The notes: a model not told the origin generated them from the letters alone. Shown: positions 7,983-57,519, numbered from the stretch's first letter. The stretch: DNA of 64,000 bases from Bdellovibrionia bacterium (GCA_030424715.1 JAUHWH010000005.1:62001-126000); one strand, 5' to 3'. A program made the numbers and translations.

Positions 7983-10277
7983 GTGGGACTGCGCCTAATG
8001 TCAAGGACGATGAAACTCACTGGTAGAAAGCAATTTGGTCTTGGAATTTTGACGCTTTTCATCATCCTGTTCTTAGGATTTTCCTACACCGACTATAAAA
8101 TTCAGAGACTCATTGAAGACAAGCGCTTTCTCGCCCCCACTCGCTATTATTCAAGCCCGGTCAAATTTTATGTGGGACAGGTGCGCAGTCTCTCTAGCCT
8201 TAAAGATTATTTCTCTCGTGAAGAGTATCGCTCTCGCCCCTTTGGTTCTCCGATCCAGGTGGGTGACTACAGCGTGGGTAACAGGGCCGACTGCGGACAG
8301 ATTGTCAAAGGAGAGAACGAGGTGTTCTCCTGTTTATTATTCCGCGCTCGTTACTCTAAAAAGCTCAACCTGATCAACCTCAACGAGCTTGACCAGATCC
8401 ACAGTATTTTCGTGGGCGAGGATCTAGTGCCATCTCTTTACGCAGAGGCCGATGCCCAGATTTTTGCTCAATATCTCGGGAGTCAGCCCACCCAACAAAT
8501 CAAAGTGGAACTGGGAGACATCCCTCGCTACTGTTTAGACGCTGTGCTTGCCATCGAGGACCCGGACTTTCTGGAGCACAGTGGAATCAGCGTCCGAGGA
8601 CTGACTCGAGCGCTGATCGCCAACTTAAAAAATATTCGCTACTCCCAAGGCGGCAGCACCATCACCCAACAACTGGTAAAAAACTATTTTTTAACTCCAG
8701 AAAAAACCATCAAGCGCAAAGTTATTGAGATCGTCATCTCTTTAATTTTTGAGTTCCGAGTTTCAAAAGACGATATCCTGCAAACCTACCTCAACATCAT
8801 TTACCTAGGACAAAGCGGTGTTTTTGAAGTGCGTGGCTACGGTTCGGCATCAGAGTACTATTTTCAAAAAAGTGTGGACCGGCTGAATTTAGGGGAATGT
8901 GCCATGCTCGCCGCCATCGTCAACAACCCAGGCCGCTTCAACCCAGTCCGCAACCCAGAGAATGCAAAACAACGGCGCACTCGGGTGTTGGATAAAATGA
9001 TGGAGCATGATCGCATCACCCGAGAAGAGTACGACCAAGCTCTTCAGTCTCCCCTGCCCCACTCGTTAAAGTCGAATCTTGCTGACTCGGCCCCTTACTA
9101 TGTCGATGCCGTGAATAAAGAACTTAAGAAGTTGGGTATCGAAGAGCGCTCGGGCCTCGACGTCTATACCGCCCTGGAGCCAGAAGCCCAGCAGCTGGCG
9201 GAGAAGGCAGTGACTCAAGGGATAAAATATTTTGAAAACAACTTGGCTTTTATCAAAAAAATTAAAGAGAGCAAAAAGATCGACCTGCAGGCCACTCTGA
9301 TCGCTAGCAATCCTCTCACCGGTGAAGTTGTGGCCATTGTCGGCGGGCGGGATTTTCGAACCTCGCCCTACAATCGAGCCATTGAAAGCCAACGACAAGT
9401 GGGATCGGTATTTAAACCCATCGTTTATTTGACAGCGTTGCGCTCCCGGGCCCCCACAGGTCAGCTCTATACACCACTGACCCTGATCGACAACAGCCCA
9501 CTGAAACTCGAATACGATCGCCAAGTCTGGGAGCCTAAAAATTACGATGGTCAGTTTTCTGCACCCCTCCCGTTATTTTTTGCTCTCAAAGAGTCAAAGA
9601 ATGTTCCCACCGCCCGACTTGCCGTGGCCGTGGGCTTAGATAATGTCATTGCAACGGCCAGAGATCTGGGAGTGACCTCTGAACTCAAAGAATACCCTTC
9701 ACTCTCTCTCGGCGCCTTTGAACTCAAGCCCATGGAAGTGCTGATGGCTTACAACACCATCTCTCAAATGGGATTACGGCAAGACTTGCAGATTGTAAAA
9801 CGAGTGCAAAACAACCGTGGCGACACACTCTATGTTCATGACAACTGGGGCGAGCCCGTCGGCAATGTCGAAGACTTTAATGTGCTCGTTGGGATGATGA
9901 AAGAAACTCTGATTTCAGGCACCGGCGCCTTCTCTCGAGCCATGGGGTTGAAACACGTGGCGGCTGGCAAAACCGGAACCACCTCCGACACTCGCGATGC
10001 CTGGTTCGCCGGGTTCACTCCCTTTCATACGGCCGTCACTTGGGTTGGGTACGATGACGGCACCCCCCATCGCCTCACCGGTGCTTCTGGAGCTCTGCCA
10101 ATATGGACGAACTATATGCGTGAAATCGCCAAACGCTACGCTAACCGCGACTTCGATTTCTCGAAACAGGTCTACGAAGAAACCCTAGACCGTGACAGCC
10201 TCATTGAACGTGGTGTGCCAGAAGAAAAGGCGCGCGACACTCAGTTAATTTTCCGACGAAAAGACGAATCACAATAA
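7983..10277 (+). CDS. mrcB: Class A penicillin-binding protein (PBP1B-like glycosyltransferase/transpeptidase)
   Basis: Bifunctional peptidoglycan polymerase of up to 764 residues, anchored by one N-terminal membrane helix (about 17-36). A region at about 55-170 resembles the UB2H-type linker of PBP1B. The GT51 domain follows: E192 in I-E-D-P-D-F with H199 (E-D-x-x-F-x-x-H), then G-G-S-T-I-T-Q-Q at 223-230. The transpeptidase domain has the serine motif S-V-F-K near 475, S-K-N near 538 and K-T-G near 662. All catalytic motifs are intact. Several starts are possible (7983, 7998, 8010); none has an ideal ribosome-binding site. The gene is monocistronic and divergent from the DUF507 pair. It polymerises and cross-links septal or lateral wall peptidoglycan at the outer face of the inner membrane. 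Confidence 0.93.
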   Translation: MGLRLMSRTMKLTGRKQFGLGILTLFIILFLGFSYTDYKIQRLIEDKRFLAPTRYYSSPVKFYVGQVRSLSSLKDYFSREEYRSRPFGSPIQVGDYSVGNRADCGQIVKGENEVFSCLLFRARYSKKLNLINLNELDQIHSIFVGEDLVPSLYAEADAQIFAQYLGSQPTQQIKVELGDIPRYCLDAVLAIEDPDFLEHSGISVRGLTRALIANLKNIRYSQGGSTITQQLVKNYFLTPEKTIKRKVIEIVISLIFEFRVSKDDILQTYLNIIYLGQSGVFEVRGYGSASEYYFQKSVDRLNLGECAMLAAIVNNPGRFNPVRNPENAKQRRTRVLDKMMEHDRITREEYDQALQSPLPHSLKSNLADSAPYYVDAVNKELKKLGIEERSGLDVYTALEPEAQQLAEKAVTQGIKYFENNLAFIKKIKESKKIDLQATLIASNPLTGEVVAIVGGRDFRTSPYNRAIESQRQVGSVFKPIVYLTALRSRAPTGQLYTPLTLIDNSPLKLEYDRQVWEPKNYDGQFSAPLPLFFALKESKNVPTARLAVAVGLDNVIATARDLGVTSELKEYPSLSLGAFELKPMEVLMAYNTISQMGLRQDLQIVKRVQNNRGDTLYVHDNWGEPVGNVEDFNVLVGMMKETLISGTGAFSRAMGLKHVAAGKTGTTSDTRDAWFAGFTPFHTAVTWVGYDDGTPHRLTGASGALPIWTNYMREIAKRYANRDFDFSKQVYEETLDRDSLIERGVPEEKARDTQLIFRRKDESQ

Positions 10278-53780: not shown

Positions 53781-54353
53781 ATGAAGTTGTTGAACGTTTT
53801 AGTACCATTAGTATTGGCCCTTTTCTTAGCCAACTGTTCGATTGATGTCGCCATCGAAGACATTACCGGTGACGATTTTTTAAAATCGACGATTCTCGCC
53901 ACATCTCGCGGTGTGGGTGACGGTCAAACTAGCGCGACTGTGGTTGTGCTACTAAAGAACTCCGATGATTCGACAGTCACCGACTACAAGCCGGCCTTTA
54001 ACTTCGTGGACAATACAGGTTCAGCAATAACAGGCAACGGCATTACCTTTTCGAACTGTTCGGTCTCTAACTCTCAGGGTATTTCCACCTGTTCTTTCAA
54101 ATCTATAGAGGTCGGTGCTCGCCGAGTGCTTTTTAATAACATTATCGTTGAGCTGGTCGGAGAAGTGTTTTTCGATGCTCCCAGCCGCAAAGGAACCTTC
54201 ACCCAAATCGTAAATGCGGGTCAGATTGACCAAGATGCCTCTGGATATTCGGTGACATCCTTCATCGGTGCCCCTTTCAAAGGTTTAAAACAAGAGGTCA
54301 ATGGCTACGTGATCTTCACCAACACCACAGGTGGAATCACCCCTATCGAATAA
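53781..54353 (+). CDS. Lipoprotein with an Ig-like domain, under sigma-28 control
   Basis: A 190-residue lipoprotein: hydrophobic signal and lipobox F-L-A-N-C with lipid cysteine at 19. The mature part is beta-rich and resembles a bacterial Ig-like (Big-1/invasin) domain: A-T-S-R-G-V-G-D-G-Q-T-S-A-T-V-V-V near 42-58, two cysteines about 94 and 103, and V-G-A-R-R-V. It lies eight bases after a perfect sigma-28 promoter, so the mRNA is leaderless or nearly so. A cell-surface adhesin or stabiliser used by flagellated cells is an inference. The next gene starts 58 bases later on the same strand without a terminator between. Confidence 0.78.
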   Translation: MKLLNVLVPLVLALFLANCSIDVAIEDITGDDFLKSTILATSRGVGDGQTSATVVVLLKNSDDSTVTDYKPAFNFVDNTGSAITGNGITFSNCSVSNSQGISTCSFKSIEVGARRVLFNNIIVELVGEVFFDAPSRKGTFTQIVNAGQIDQDASGYSVTSFIGAPFKGLKQEVNGYVIFTNTTGGITPIE

Positions 54354-54377: not shown

Positions 54378-54412
54378 TAGCTCATTAGCTCTCTATAGCG
54401 AACAATGAGCTA
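54378..54412 (+). promoter_or_regulatory. Inverted repeat covering the start of the pentapeptide gene
   Basis: TAGCTCATT (54378-54386) and AATGAGCTA (54404-54412) are perfect nine-base arms around a 17-base loop. The right arm contains the weak ribosome-binding site and the first base of the ATG at 54412. It could hide the start in the mRNA or bind a regulator. Confidence 0.55.
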
Positions 54413-55032
54413 TGGTCTACACAGTTCTTTTCTCGATTCTATGCCTGTCTTTTTCGAGTCACGCCATAGATCTCAATTTTCGATTTGAAAACGGCTATTG
54501 CCAAAAAGGCAAAGTCCCAGGAACCAATCCAAATTTTTTTGGTGAATGTGGCAACCTCACTAAAACTCGCATTATCAACCGCAAAGAACGCAACCTAAAT
54601 TTAGTGGGTGCCAATCTGAATGGTACCTACACCTACGTCACCGACTACGCTGAAAGCGACCTTAGCCATGTCGCGATGAAACGAGCGGTCCTCCTACAGA
54701 CAAACTTCACCGATTCAAAAGCAAAGTCCATTGATTTTAGGGCTGGTCAAATGAAGGGTGTGACTTTTCAAAATGTAGACCTTGAAAAGCTGCTGGCCAC
54801 AGGCGCTCGAATTTCAAAAACCAGCTTTGTTAATTGCAACCTGCAGGGAGCAGACTTCTGGGGCACCCTCCTCTTACAGGTGAGCTTCGAGGGCAGCGAC
54901 CTCCGAGGCGCTAACTTCTCGAACACTTTCACTCTCTTGTCTAATTTTCAAGGTGCTAAGTTTAATAGTAAAACGCAGCTGCCTTTCTCGAAAGAGAAAG
55001 CACTGCAACGGGGAATGGTTGAAGTTGATTAA
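54412..55032 (+). CDS. Exported pentapeptide-repeat protein
   Basis: A 206-residue protein with a signal peptide (about 1-18, F-S-S-H-A) and then a cysteine pair region (N-G-Y-C ... G-E-C-G). From about residue 60 it is a pentapeptide-repeat right-handed beta helix: L-V-G-A-N-L-N-G, A-E-S-D-L-S-H-V, L-L-Q-T-N-F-T-D, L-Q-G-A-D-F-W-G, L-R-G-A-N-F-S-N, F-Q-G-A-K-F. This suggests a rigid periplasmic rod or binding platform, not a DNA gyrase mimic, since it is exported. It overlaps the HTTM-like gene, so the products are likely made together. Confidence 0.82.
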   Translation: MVYTVLFSILCLSFSSHAIDLNFRFENGYCQKGKVPGTNPNFFGECGNLTKTRIINRKERNLNLVGANLNGTYTYVTDYAESDLSHVAMKRAVLLQTNFTDSKAKSIDFRAGQMKGVTFQNVDLEKLLATGARISKTSFVNCNLQGADFWGTLLLQVSFEGSDLRGANFSNTFTLLSNFQGAKFNSKTQLPFSKEKALQRGMVEVD

Positions 55033-56248
55033 GTTTATTGGATTGCAAATTGAACAGATCAGGAACGATTTCACGCTGCGATTGTATGGTGCTCTTTTGG
55101 CTCTCACTCATTTGTGGACTTTTTTTTATTGGAATCGAAATCAGTTTTTTATTAACAGTCAGTCCAGCATCAATGCCGAGCCCATCTGTTTTCCCTTTTT
55201 CCCAAACTGCGACCTGTTTCGGCAATCGATCAGTGTGGATGCCTGGGCCCATACCCTCACCTTCTATCTCGGATTCACGATTCTCACAGTTGTTTTTTTC
55301 GCCTTTCGGCGAACCACGACGCCTGCCTTTTTCTCTCTGCTTTTTTTGACACTGATGAAGTTCTTTCTTCATATGAGCAACTATAACTTCATGGGCAACT
55401 ATCACTATATGGTGTACATCGTCACGGCTCTCTTGCTGTTTGCCCCTCGTAGAAGAGAGAGCCTGAAAGTCATGATTGTTGGGTTTTACGTTGCTGCTGG
55501 CCTCCTGAAAATTAATATCGACTGGCTTAGTGGAGCGGCCATGATTCGCACGCCCGCACTCGGCGGAGACCTTTTGGTGACCTCTCTTTTCTACGTGGTA
55601 TTTTTAGAGCTGGTGTTGGTCTTTGGGCTCTTGCACCATAAACGATGGGTTCGAGCGATCACCCTTTTACAACTGCTTTGTTTTCACGCCTTTTCTTGGC
55701 ACATTGTCGGTTTTTTCTATCCCATGATGATGTTTTCAGTACTTTCTCTTTTTGTCTTGGACGAATTCATTTTTAATAGCAAACGTGAACAAAGCGAAAA
55801 CATTCTGTTGCACTTGTTCTCCGGTCGTCTTGGCCGTTCCACCTATGTTGTCCTTATTGTGTTCTGGTTGTGCCAAGTCATCCCCTTTGGTCTCACCACA
55901 GACCCCTCTCTCAGTGGCGCGCTCCGCCTGTCGTCCCTGAATATGTTTGATTCGAAAACACAATGCCACAGCCTACTTGTTGCAAAAACTGAACAAGGAA
56001 CGGTGCACTTGCAGAAACCCATGAAAAACTTGGGAACGCGCTTGAGCTGCGATCCACTGATTTATTTGAATCAAGCCCATCAACTGTGCCGCGCCAACAG
56101 AGACTCAAAAGAGATCAAGCAACTCAGCCTCACCCTTTTTGCGAAACGAGTGACTGAACAACATTATAAAAAGTCGATCGACATCAAAAATGTTTGTGAA
56201 CTCTCAAACCCCTTATGGGCTGAGCTCTATTCCGGAGAATCCTCATGA
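55019..56248 (+). CDS. HTTM-like membrane protein related to vitamin-K-dependent gamma-carboxylase
   Basis: A polytopic protein of about 409 residues with about nine membrane helices (first near 22-38) and a polar C-terminal 120 residues. Helix-edge motifs fit HTTM: N-Y-N-F-M-G-N-Y-H-Y in the middle and A-G-L-L-K-I-N-I-D-W-L-S-G. In human GGCX the second motif is A-G-V-K-K-L-D-A-D-W, and its second lysine is K218, the base thought to deprotonate vitamin K; the matching lysine here is encoded at 55508-55510. Start is uncertain: TTG at 55019 or 55025 (overlapping the previous gene), or further upstream at 54953. It may oxidise a quinol or modify a partner. The family alignment is from memory. 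Confidence 0.72.
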   Translation: MKLIKFIGLQIEQIRNDFTLRLYGALLALTHLWTFFYWNRNQFFINSQSSINAEPICFPFFPNCDLFRQSISVDAWAHTLTFYLGFTILTVVFFAFRRTTTPAFFSLLFLTLMKFFLHMSNYNFMGNYHYMVYIVTALLLFAPRRRESLKVMIVGFYVAAGLLKINIDWLSGAAMIRTPALGGDLLVTSLFYVVFLELVLVFGLLHHKRWVRAITLLQLLCFHAFSWHIVGFFYPMMMFSVLSLFVLDEFIFNSKREQSENILLHLFSGRLGRSTYVVLIVFWLCQVIPFGLTTDPSLSGALRLSSLNMFDSKTQCHSLLVAKTEQGTVHLQKPMKNLGTRLSCDPLIYLNQAHQLCRANRDSKEIKQLSLTLFAKRVTEQHYKKSIDIKNVCELSNPLWAELYSGESS

Positions 56249-57519
56249 AACAGCAAGCTCTCTACGCCGGCGTTGCCGCGGTCTCAGTCATTGTTGCTGT
56301 CCTTGGGTTTCGAGCCAACCCCCAACTATTGTCGTACCGCCAAAGCTATTACAAAATTGTCGAGGCGCCACCGGTCGCCTCGGCAACAGTTTACAAAGAG
56401 CTTCAATCCTCTTGTCAGGCGACAGCGCAATATCGTTACGATGAGCGACGCACAGGGGTCGCACCTGGCACCGCCAGACCAAACAGCACCGTCAGTATCA
56501 TCAAACAGATTTTCCCATTGAATGTGGATATTCACAGTGCCTCGAAGTCATCACCCACCGTCGACGACACCGGAGTCTATATCGGCAGCGACACCGGTTG
56601 GTTTTTCAAGATGGATCACGATGGAAACATCCTGTGGCGATTTTACCTTCCCGGTTCTGGCAACGGCATTCATGGCTCCGCCGCCCTCGACGACAAAAAG
56701 GTCTACATTGGTGCTTACAACGGTTTTATGTACGCCCTTGATAAAAACAATGGCGACTTGGTTTGGGCCAATCCTGTGGCACAATTTATTGGCGCTTCCC
56801 CCCTGTTGGCTGATGGCGCTCTTTTTATTTCTGGAGAAACACGCCACCCCGACGGCCTGGTGGCAAAGTTGGACTGCAATACCGGAGCCACCCTCTGGGT
56901 TTCAAAATGGCTGGGGGGACACTCTCACTCGTCACCCACGTTCGATGTAAAAAATGATCTTATCTTAGTCGGTGCCAACAGTGGGCGCTTTTTCGCATTT
57001 GATGCAAAAACGGGGGAAACTCGTTGGCAGCAACAACTGAAGGGACAGATTAAGGGAACACCCATGATCTGGGACGGCACCGCCTACTTCGGATCTTGGG
57101 ACCGAAACTACCACGCCTATGATTTAAAAACGGGCCGATCACGATGGAAAACCTTTATGGGTGGCCGCATTCAAACCAGCCTTACCCTGGTTCCTAACAG
57201 TGGAATCGGCGTTACAAACACAAAGGTGGGAGATATTGTCGGAATCAAACTCGCCGATGGTGAAATCCTTTGGCGATTGCGCCACGGTGACCGCAATCAC
57301 CAATTTAGCATTCTGGTTACTGAAGATCCCAGCCGGCCCAATGAGTACCTGGCCTGGAGCCGCTGCAAAAAGTTTCAACTCTGCACGCTGGACGCAAAAA
57401 CCGGTAAGCTTCTCAACAACATTGATTTGCCGGGATCATTCACTAGCGTGCCCTTCGCGTGGCAAGACAAAATATATATTAGCTTAGACAAAAACCAAGG
57501 GCTGGTCGTATTACAATAG
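56245..57519 (+). CDS. Membrane-anchored PQQ-like beta-propeller protein
   Basis: A 424-residue protein with one N-terminal membrane anchor (about 7-22) and a PQQ/Kelch-type propeller in the rest. At least six blade repeats are visible, with recurring Y-I-G-S-D-T-G, Y-A-L-D-K-N-N-G-D-L-V-W, F-A-F-D-A-K-T-G-E-T-R-W, Y-D-L-K-T-G-R-S-R-W and L-D-A-K-T-G-K-L elements. W-x-x blade closures are as in the BamB and PQQ-dehydrogenase folds. Cofactor-binding residues of PQQ enzymes were not found, so a binding role is likelier than catalysis. The ATG overlaps the HTTM-like stop (ATGA). The propeller probably faces the periplasm. Confidence 0.85.
   Translation: MKQQALYAGVAAVSVIVAVLGFRANPQLLSYRQSYYKIVEAPPVASATVYKELQSSCQATAQYRYDERRTGVAPGTARPNSTVSIIKQIFPLNVDIHSASKSSPTVDDTGVYIGSDTGWFFKMDHDGNILWRFYLPGSGNGIHGSAALDDKKVYIGAYNGFMYALDKNNGDLVWANPVAQFIGASPLLADGALFISGETRHPDGLVAKLDCNTGATLWVSKWLGGHSHSSPTFDVKNDLILVGANSGRFFAFDAKTGETRWQQQLKGQIKGTPMIWDGTAYFGSWDRNYHAYDLKTGRSRWKTFMGGRIQTSLTLVPNSGIGVTNTKVGDIVGIKLADGEILWRLRHGDRNHQFSILVTEDPSRPNEYLAWSRCKKFQLCTLDAKTGKLLNNIDLPGSFTSVPFAWQDKIYISLDKNQGLVVLQ

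What the first reader, a model, noticed from the sequence alone, without database searches (positions are those of the whole stretch)
54412..57519. Three-gene envelope locus: exported pentapeptide protein, HTTM/carboxylase-like membrane protein, PQQ-type propeller
The three genes overlap or nearly overlap, so they are likely co-translated. The combination of a periplasmic pentapeptide helix, a polytopic HTTM protein and a membrane-tethered propeller is not one I know. HTTM proteins related to vitamin-K-dependent carboxylase are usually orphans in bacteria; here it has two exported partners that could be substrate, scaffold or docking platform. A quinol-driven modification of a surface protein is a reasonable hypothesis. 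The order and overlap are seen directly; the chemistry is inference.
Basis: partly seen in the sequence, partly recalled or inferred. Interest (0 to 1): 0.75.

Follow-up and report, generated by a model that had tools for sequence, protein, structure and literature searches.

The report
Membrane enzyme trio beside adhesin genes
In Bdellovibrio-like bacteria, a divergent membrane relative of the vitamin-K-dependent carboxylase is kept together with a pentapeptide-helix protein and a beta-propeller, and related copies sit beside genes for surface adhesins and pilus proteins, often with odd Asp/Gly-rich ends, which suggests an undescribed system that finishes surface proteins.

Summary
The three overlapping genes are real and are not a local accident. 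The same set (PENTA, HTTM-like, propeller), or HTTM-propeller fusions, recur across Bdellovibrionales genomes in several gene orders. The middle protein misses the Pfam HTTM model directly. A profile-profile comparison with canonical HTTM proteins (96%, E 1.5e-9) and the conserved Lys164, Trp169 and Phe222-His223 place it in that superfamily; Lys164 matches GGCX catalytic Lys218. The His matching GGCX His160 lies one residue off, and a side clade has lost the Lys/His set. The propeller is BamB-like, not a PQQ enzyme.

The unexpected result is what the copies sit beside: MAT-type fibres, Big_1 adhesin lipoproteins and minor-pilin operons whose C-termini are often short Asp/Gly(/Cys) tails such as CDGDGDGF. 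Such tails lie near 12 of 26 independent copies with an intact Lys/His set, against 1 of 38 random regions. The window's own copy has a Big_1-like lipoprotein in front (53781-54353) but no such tail nearby, and tail-motif searches of its genome found none.

Best reading: a membrane enzyme (menaquinol use inferred) with two periplasmic partners that modifies exported adhesins. The partnership is well supported; chemistry and exact substrate are not shown.

The parts
53781..54353 (+). Big_1-like lipoprotein (190 aa), conserved neighbour of the trio; single-domain relative of long adhesin lipoproteins beside the trio in sister lineages
   Evidence: ORF; HMM of its family hits the 2286-aa adhesin of L182 (11 domains, E 2e-63) and the 1359-aa one of L055 (7 domains, E 2e-34); L055 protein is PF02369 Big_1
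54412..55032 (+). PENTA: exported pentapeptide-repeat protein with N-terminal signal sequence and a C-terminal cap (T-x-LPFS-x-E-x-A-x-x-x-GM type)
   Evidence: PF00805 52 bits; alignment of 25 partners; signal sequence read by eye
55025..56248 (+). HTTM-like polytopic membrane protein (about 9 TM, N-in/C-out by hydropathy), C-terminal periplasmic domain with four invariant Cys; TTG start 55025 or 55019
55403..55405 (+). His129 codon (GNYHY motif; numbering from TTG 55019), one residue after the GGCX His160 position
55508..55510 (+). Lys164 codon (AGLLKIN), equivalent of GGCX catalytic Lys218
55523..55525 (+). Trp169 codon, invariant in 47 of 47 aligned relatives and in canonical HTTM
56245..57519 (+). 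PROP: membrane-anchored periplasmic BamB-like beta-propeller with an invariant Cys pair (C374/C380)

Best explanation
The locus encodes an inner-membrane/periplasmic protein-maturation unit. The HTTM-like protein is the catalytic core. By analogy with GGCX it would take reduced menaquinone from the membrane, and Lys164 at the periplasmic face would start the reaction on an exported protein. The propeller, tethered by its N-terminal helix or fused directly to the HTTM C-terminus in relatives, and the pentapeptide helix would be non-catalytic docking parts. The clients are surface adhesins encoded beside the system: in the window probably the Big_1-like lipoprotein, or a client elsewhere in the genome; in relatives MAT-type fibres, Big_1 adhesins and minor pilins, many ending in a short Asp/Gly(/Cys) tail that is the best candidate for the recognised or modified site. 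Shown: trio and fusions, superfamily membership, conserved Lys/Trp/His, linkage to adhesin genes and tails. Inferred: enzyme activity, quinol use, tail as substrate. My split: co-functioning unit acting on surface proteins about 0.65; enzymatic and tail-directed about 0.35; carboxylation specifically about 0.1.
For: Trio conserved with changed gene order and HTTM-PROP fusions on several branches; fusions begin after PROP's membrane anchor, as expected if the HTTM C-terminus is periplasmic. HTTM superfamily: hhalign 96.3%, E 1.5e-9; Lys164 = GGCX K218 through L110. Of 26 lineage clusters with Lys and His, 12 have an Asp/Gly-tailed gene within 8 kb against 1 of 38 random 20-kb regions (p 3e-5); loci found after the idea was formed: 4 of 9 against 0 of 18 random regions from the same five genomes (p 0.007); Lys/His-degenerate clade 0 of 14. 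DGDGDG[FY]-stop occurs 8 times in 99 genomes, once in each of the 8 genomes with the second PENTA-HTTM pair, directly upstream of it; the last 8 residues are identical in 8 fibres while the adjoining tip is poorly conserved. The window HTTM groups with L182 and L055, whose trios lie beside Big_1 adhesins with Gly/Asp tails. menB present.
Against: No Asp/Gly tail near the window trio, and tail-motif searches of its genome found none at a C-terminus. The clade with propeller but without Lys/His shows that the pair can persist without the GGCX-like residues. The GGCX His160 position is not exactly kept. No Glu-rich (Gla-like) target seen. Asp/Gly stretches also occur as internal linkers (L074, L078). 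A distant full-length relative in an Agrobacterium NRPS cluster lacks the partners. Structure prediction of the HTTM protein failed (pLDDT 50). Within Bdellovibrio the tail and HTTM copy 2 share descent, so those cases are not independent.
Confidence: 0.35

Rival explanations
1. Non-enzymatic assembly or export scaffold: HTTM-like protein, BamB-like propeller and pentapeptide helix form a chaperone or anchoring platform that hands adhesins, fibres and minor pilins to the outer membrane; Lys/His/Trp are fold residues.
For: The propeller is closest to BamB, an outer-membrane assembly factor; the propeller pair persists where Lys/His are lost; linkage to surface-protein genes.
Against: Lys, Phe-His and Asn-x-His-Tyr are strongly kept in the clade linked to tailed clients and often lost in the clade without them (0 of 14), which suggests chemistry; K and H are also invariant in the canonical HTTM set.
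Confidence: 0.3
2. Disulfide or redox maturation: the six conserved Cys and quinone coupling make the unit a DsbB/VKOR-like oxidant for Cys-containing adhesin tails (many tails contain Cys).
For: C57, C64, C316, C344, C357, C393 conserved in HTTM and C374/C380 in PROP; many tails carry Cys; weak MauE and DoxX Pfam hits among relatives.
Against: No CxxC motif; C57/C64 are lost together in three of 47 relatives, as structural disulfides would be; several tails lack Cys (DGDGDGDGN, GGGDGGGDGGA).
Confidence: 0.12
3. True carboxylase: Asp (or Glu) residues of the clients become carboxylated, giving calcium-binding clusters on adhesins, the bacterial counterpart of Gla formation.
For: GGCX K218 equivalent; Asp-rich tails; vitamin K2 pathway gene menB. 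From memory, not checked: GGCX was reported to carboxylate Asp in synthetic peptides.
Against: His160 offset; similarity covers only the 161-column membrane core, not the GGCX luminal domain; no precedent known to me for Asp as the natural target.
Confidence: 0.1
4. Chance or linker: Asp/Gly tails are just flexible ends common in secreted proteins of this lineage, and HTTM loci happen to lie among envelope genes.
For: Internal Gly/Asp linkers occur in lipoproteins L074, L077, L078; random background regions are not restricted to secreted proteins, so they may understate the background.
Against: 1 of 38 random regions against 12 of 26 clusters; exact conservation of CDGDGDGF; pattern confined to copy-2 genomes.
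Confidence: 0.15

Closest known systems
Vitamin K-dependent gamma-glutamyl carboxylase (GGCX; PDB 9bum, 9bvk, 9l1y and others)
   Same: HTTM membrane core with Lys218 equivalent, Trp and Phe-His motif; about 9 TM; active face outside the cytoplasm
   Different: Only about 160 core columns align; His160 position offset; small four-Cys C-terminal domain instead of the large luminal domain; partners PENTA and propeller; no known Gla substrate
Canonical bacterial HTTM proteins (PF05090, SdpB-like; L110-L138)
   Same: Superfamily, motif pattern K-W-H
   Different: Window protein falls below Pfam detection; canonical copies sit elsewhere (own genome C8:228815, L133)
BamB / PQQ_2 propellers
   Same: Fold (Foldseek E 2e-22) and repeat family
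   Different: Membrane-anchored by an N-terminal helix, beside or fused to HTTM, extra conserved His/Ser/Lys patch and Cys pair; below BamB equivalog cut-offs
MAT fibres of Bdellovibrio bacteriovorus (PMC10769870)
   Same: Copy-2 loci encode MAT-like fibres (N-terminal QGRI...PLED domain, repeats) directly upstream of PENTA-HTTM
   Different: The passages of the paper read here do not mention an HTTM partner or the CDGDGDGF end; Bd2872 (626 aa, needed for predation in a screen) may be this fibre, by length only

Membership tests
HTTM superfamily (PF05090) | Pfam HTTM model over gathering score | tested here: not met
   No hit at E<1 for the window protein; 8 of 46 relatives hit, best E 2e-4; relatives at about 20 bits, under the 27.7 cut-off
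HTTM superfamily (PF05090) | Profile-profile relationship to canonical HTTM | tested here: met
   hhalign 96.3%, E 1.5e-9, 161 columns
HTTM superfamily (PF05090) | Invariant Lys, Trp and Phe-His motif | tested here: met
   K164 40/47, W169 47/47, H223 36/47, all three present in the window protein; K165, W170, H235 invariant in canonical set A6
HTTM superfamily (PF05090) | Predicted fold like GGCX membrane core | tested here: inconclusive
   AlphaFold2 model with four sequences, pLDDT 50, not searchable
GGCX (vitamin K carboxylase) | Catalytic Lys218 | tested here: met
   K164 aligns with L110 K165, which aligns with GGCX K218
GGCX (vitamin K carboxylase) | His160 | tested here: not met
   Window has N-Y-H-Y where GGCX has N-H-S-Y: His one residue later
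GGCX (vitamin K carboxylase) | Luminal C-terminal domain | tested here: not met
   No alignment beyond the membrane core; no GGCX hit with profile A4
GGCX (vitamin K carboxylase) | Carboxylation of Glu with reduced vitamin K | not testable with these tools
   Needs biochemistry
PQQ-dependent dehydrogenases | Curated family cut-off | tested here: not met
   TIGR03075 67.7 of 480 bits; TIGR03074 17.7 of 833
BamB | Equivalog cut-off | tested here: not met
   TIGR03300 108.5 of 285 bits
BamB-like / PQQ_2 propeller | Fold and PF13360 repeats | tested here: met
   121 bits, cut-off 27.6; model pLDDT 80, top PDB matches BamB
Pentapeptide repeat proteins | PF00805 repeats | tested here: met
   52 bits, cut-off 20.2

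The most novel reading that the evidence does not exclude
A new protein-maturation system of predatory-type bacteria: a GGCX-like, menaquinol-driven membrane enzyme with a dedicated propeller and pentapeptide partner that modifies Asp/Gly-rich C-terminal tails of fibres, adhesins and pilus-tip proteins, giving bacterial adhesins a post-translational end group such as carboxy-aspartate.
Probability: 0.2. Interest if true: 0.9.

Novelty: new variant of a known kind. Interest (0 to 1): 0.68.

Why it matters
Bacterial HTTM proteins related to the blood-clotting carboxylase mostly lack a known substrate. This locus type gives a divergent member two fixed partners and, in relatives, an adjacent client with a short conserved end, so substrate and chemistry become directly testable in a genetically tractable predator. 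If the clients are modified, it would add a new layer to how predatory bacteria build prey-recognising fibres and pili.

Tried and rejected
HMM search of the PDB with the HTTM profile: no GGCX hit. Futalosine pathway marker in own genome: absent; menB: present. Tail-motif searches of the own genome gave only internal linkers or chance frames. The GenBank accession tried for HD100 was not in the collections. 'PLuB' NCBIfam hit: weak (E 0.01 for the window propeller, best 5e-7 in one fusion) and no literature found. Literature searches on bacterial HTTM function found nothing relevant. Exact identity of Bd2872 with the copy-2 fibre was not tested. Considered and rejected: PENTA as the modified substrate (it is absent beside several fusions and in the Lys/His-degenerate clade, and its sequence is poorly conserved outside the C-cap).

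Full report
Observation. The window holds three overlapping + strand genes: PENTA 54412-55032, an HTTM-like gene ending at 56248 and PROP 56245-57519. The HTTM gene most likely starts at TTG 55025 (GGGGA 10 nt upstream; the start aligns with the ATG of orthologue L031), so it overlaps PENTA by 8 nt; HTTM and PROP overlap by ATGA. Residue numbers below count from TTG 55019. A fourth gene, a 190-aa lipoprotein (53781-54353), ends 58 nt before PENTA on the same strand.

Conservation. A search of 99 relatives found the middle protein's family in 40 genomes. Reading the neighbourhoods showed PENTA-HTTM-PROP in the same order in many genera, PROP-PENTA-HTTM in L073, fusion-then-PENTA in L068, and HTTM-PROP fusions in L043, L057/L059, L060, L068, L072 and L186. 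In the fusions the match to PROP begins after its membrane anchor and no hydrophobic segment lies between the two parts, which places the HTTM C-terminus and the propeller on the same, periplasmic side. Fused genes fall on several branches of the tree. Across the phylum the family is almost confined to this order: 43 of 291 genomes, one of them outside the order. A full-length distant relative occurs on an Agrobacterium plasmid inside an NRPS-type cluster, without the partners.

Identity of the middle protein. The window protein has no Pfam or NCBIfam match, but 8 of 46 relatives touch PF05090 HTTM weakly, and some touch MauE or DoxX. Canonical HTTM proteins were collected from the same genomes and aligned; the profile-profile comparison gives 96.3%, E 1.5e-9 over 161 columns. 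Lys164, Trp169 and His223 fall on the invariant Lys, Trp and His of canonical HTTM. L110, a bacterial protein close to the vitamin K carboxylase, links these to GGCX (E 7e-42): Lys164 corresponds to Lys218, the reported base for vitamin K hydroquinone (PMC9146348), and Trp169 to Trp223. GGCX His160 sits in N-H-S-Y, whereas this family has N-Y-H-Y, so the histidine is one residue later. Family-mean hydropathy suggests about nine TM segments, N-in and C-out, with Lys164 and the N-x-H-Y motif at the periplasmic face (my reading). Six cysteines are conserved: C57/C64 in a loop, lost together in three relatives, and four invariant ones in the C-terminal domain.

Two clades. The tree separates a clade of 15 sequences with PROP but without PENTA, most of them in a housekeeping neighbourhood (genes that look like glpX and pgsA), many of which lost Lys, His or both, from a clade with the Lys/His set.

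PROP and PENTA. PROP is a BamB-like propeller: PF13360 well above cut-off, PQQ-dehydrogenase and BamB equivalog cut-offs missed, AlphaFold2 model pLDDT 80 with BamB structures as top matches. PENTA has pentapeptide repeats and in most partners a C-terminal cap of the T-x-LPFS type.

What the systems sit beside. In Bdellovibrio genomes a second PENTA-HTTM pair without PROP follows directly after a MAT-type fibre gene. All eight such fibres aligned end in CDGDGDGF, while the preceding tip is poorly conserved. A DNA pattern for DGDGDG[FY]-stop occurs eight times in 99 genomes: once in each genome with that second pair, always just upstream of it; two further genomes agree. Elsewhere the neighbours are minor-pilin operons (prepilin motif by eye, PF07963 confirmed in two proteins), Big_1 adhesin lipoproteins (L055, L182) and a coiled-coil protein (L068), many ending in Asp/Gly(/Cys) tails. 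With a fixed rule (last 25 residues: at least 8 G or D, at least 3 of each; within 8 kb), 12 of 26 lineage clusters with Lys and His are positive against 1 of 38 random 20-kb regions (p 3e-5); loci fetched after the idea was formed give 4 of 9 against 0 of 18 random regions of the same genomes (p 0.007); the Lys/His-degenerate clade gives 0 of 14. The clusters were drawn by me from the tree, random regions are not a secretome-only control, and relatives are not independent, so the p-values are guides.

The window's own copy. No Asp/Gly-tailed gene lies near it, and motif searches of the whole genome found only internal linkers. Its nearest relatives in the tree, apart from the congener, are L182 and L055, whose trios adjoin long Big_1 adhesins with Gly/Asp-rich ends. 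The lipoprotein before the window's PENTA belongs to the same domain family: its HMM hits those adhesins with 11 and 7 domains, and its orthologue also flanks the first Bdellovibrio trio in another orientation. This makes it the likeliest local client.

Mechanism. I favour a membrane enzyme working on exported adhesins, with propeller and pentapeptide helix as docking parts. Menaquinol as reductant is plausible because menB is present above its cut-off. The chemistry is not shown; carboxylation is one option among several. A non-enzymatic assembly scaffold is the main rival, supported by the BamB likeness and by survival of the HTTM-PROP pair without Lys/His.

Links to known work. The MAT family was described with 21 members in strain HD100; two deletions there slowed predation slightly (PMC10769870). 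The paper mentions Bd2872, 626 aa, found in a predation screen; Bd2872 is also listed as required for predation in PMC6561027. Two copy-2 fibres here are 626 aa long, but I could not confirm that Bd2872 is one of them.

Verdict.

Noticed in passing
L275 (NZ_CP115844.1, Agrobacterium plasmid), 8905-10221: Distant full-length relative of the HTTM-like protein in an NRPS/PABA-synthase cluster near a DCC1-like thiol-disulfide oxidoreductase.
   Followed up: partly
L110 (G077:C1:417455), L111 (G029): Strong bacterial relatives of vitamin K-dependent carboxylase (L110 E 7e-42 to GGCX) in Bdellovibrionales genomes; possible substrates not examined.
   Followed up: no
L246, L259, L260, L270 (own genome): Family of Gly-rich secreted proteins, most with an APTWKKVSVGAGG start and an end like APVC(I/L)L; a conserved Cys-containing C-terminus.
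   Followed up: no
L070 10067-13073: Second trio beside an intact one in G078 whose HTTM copy has lost Lys and His: a possible pseudoenzyme paralogue.
   Followed up: no
L035 11898-13362: SdpB-like HTTM gene paired with a short protein of SdpA/DUF5819 look (judged by eye), close to the trio.
   Followed up: no
L078 / G000:C15:237759 and L077: Lipoprotein with GDGGGDGGGDGG linker and EF-hand-like domain in the own genus; a similar arrangement beside the HTTM-PROP fusion in L072/L074.
   Followed up: partly
L055 and L182 adhesin C-termini: Thrombospondin type-1-like Cys/Trp repeats (by eye) directly before the Gly/Asp tail of the Big_1 adhesins.
   Followed up: no
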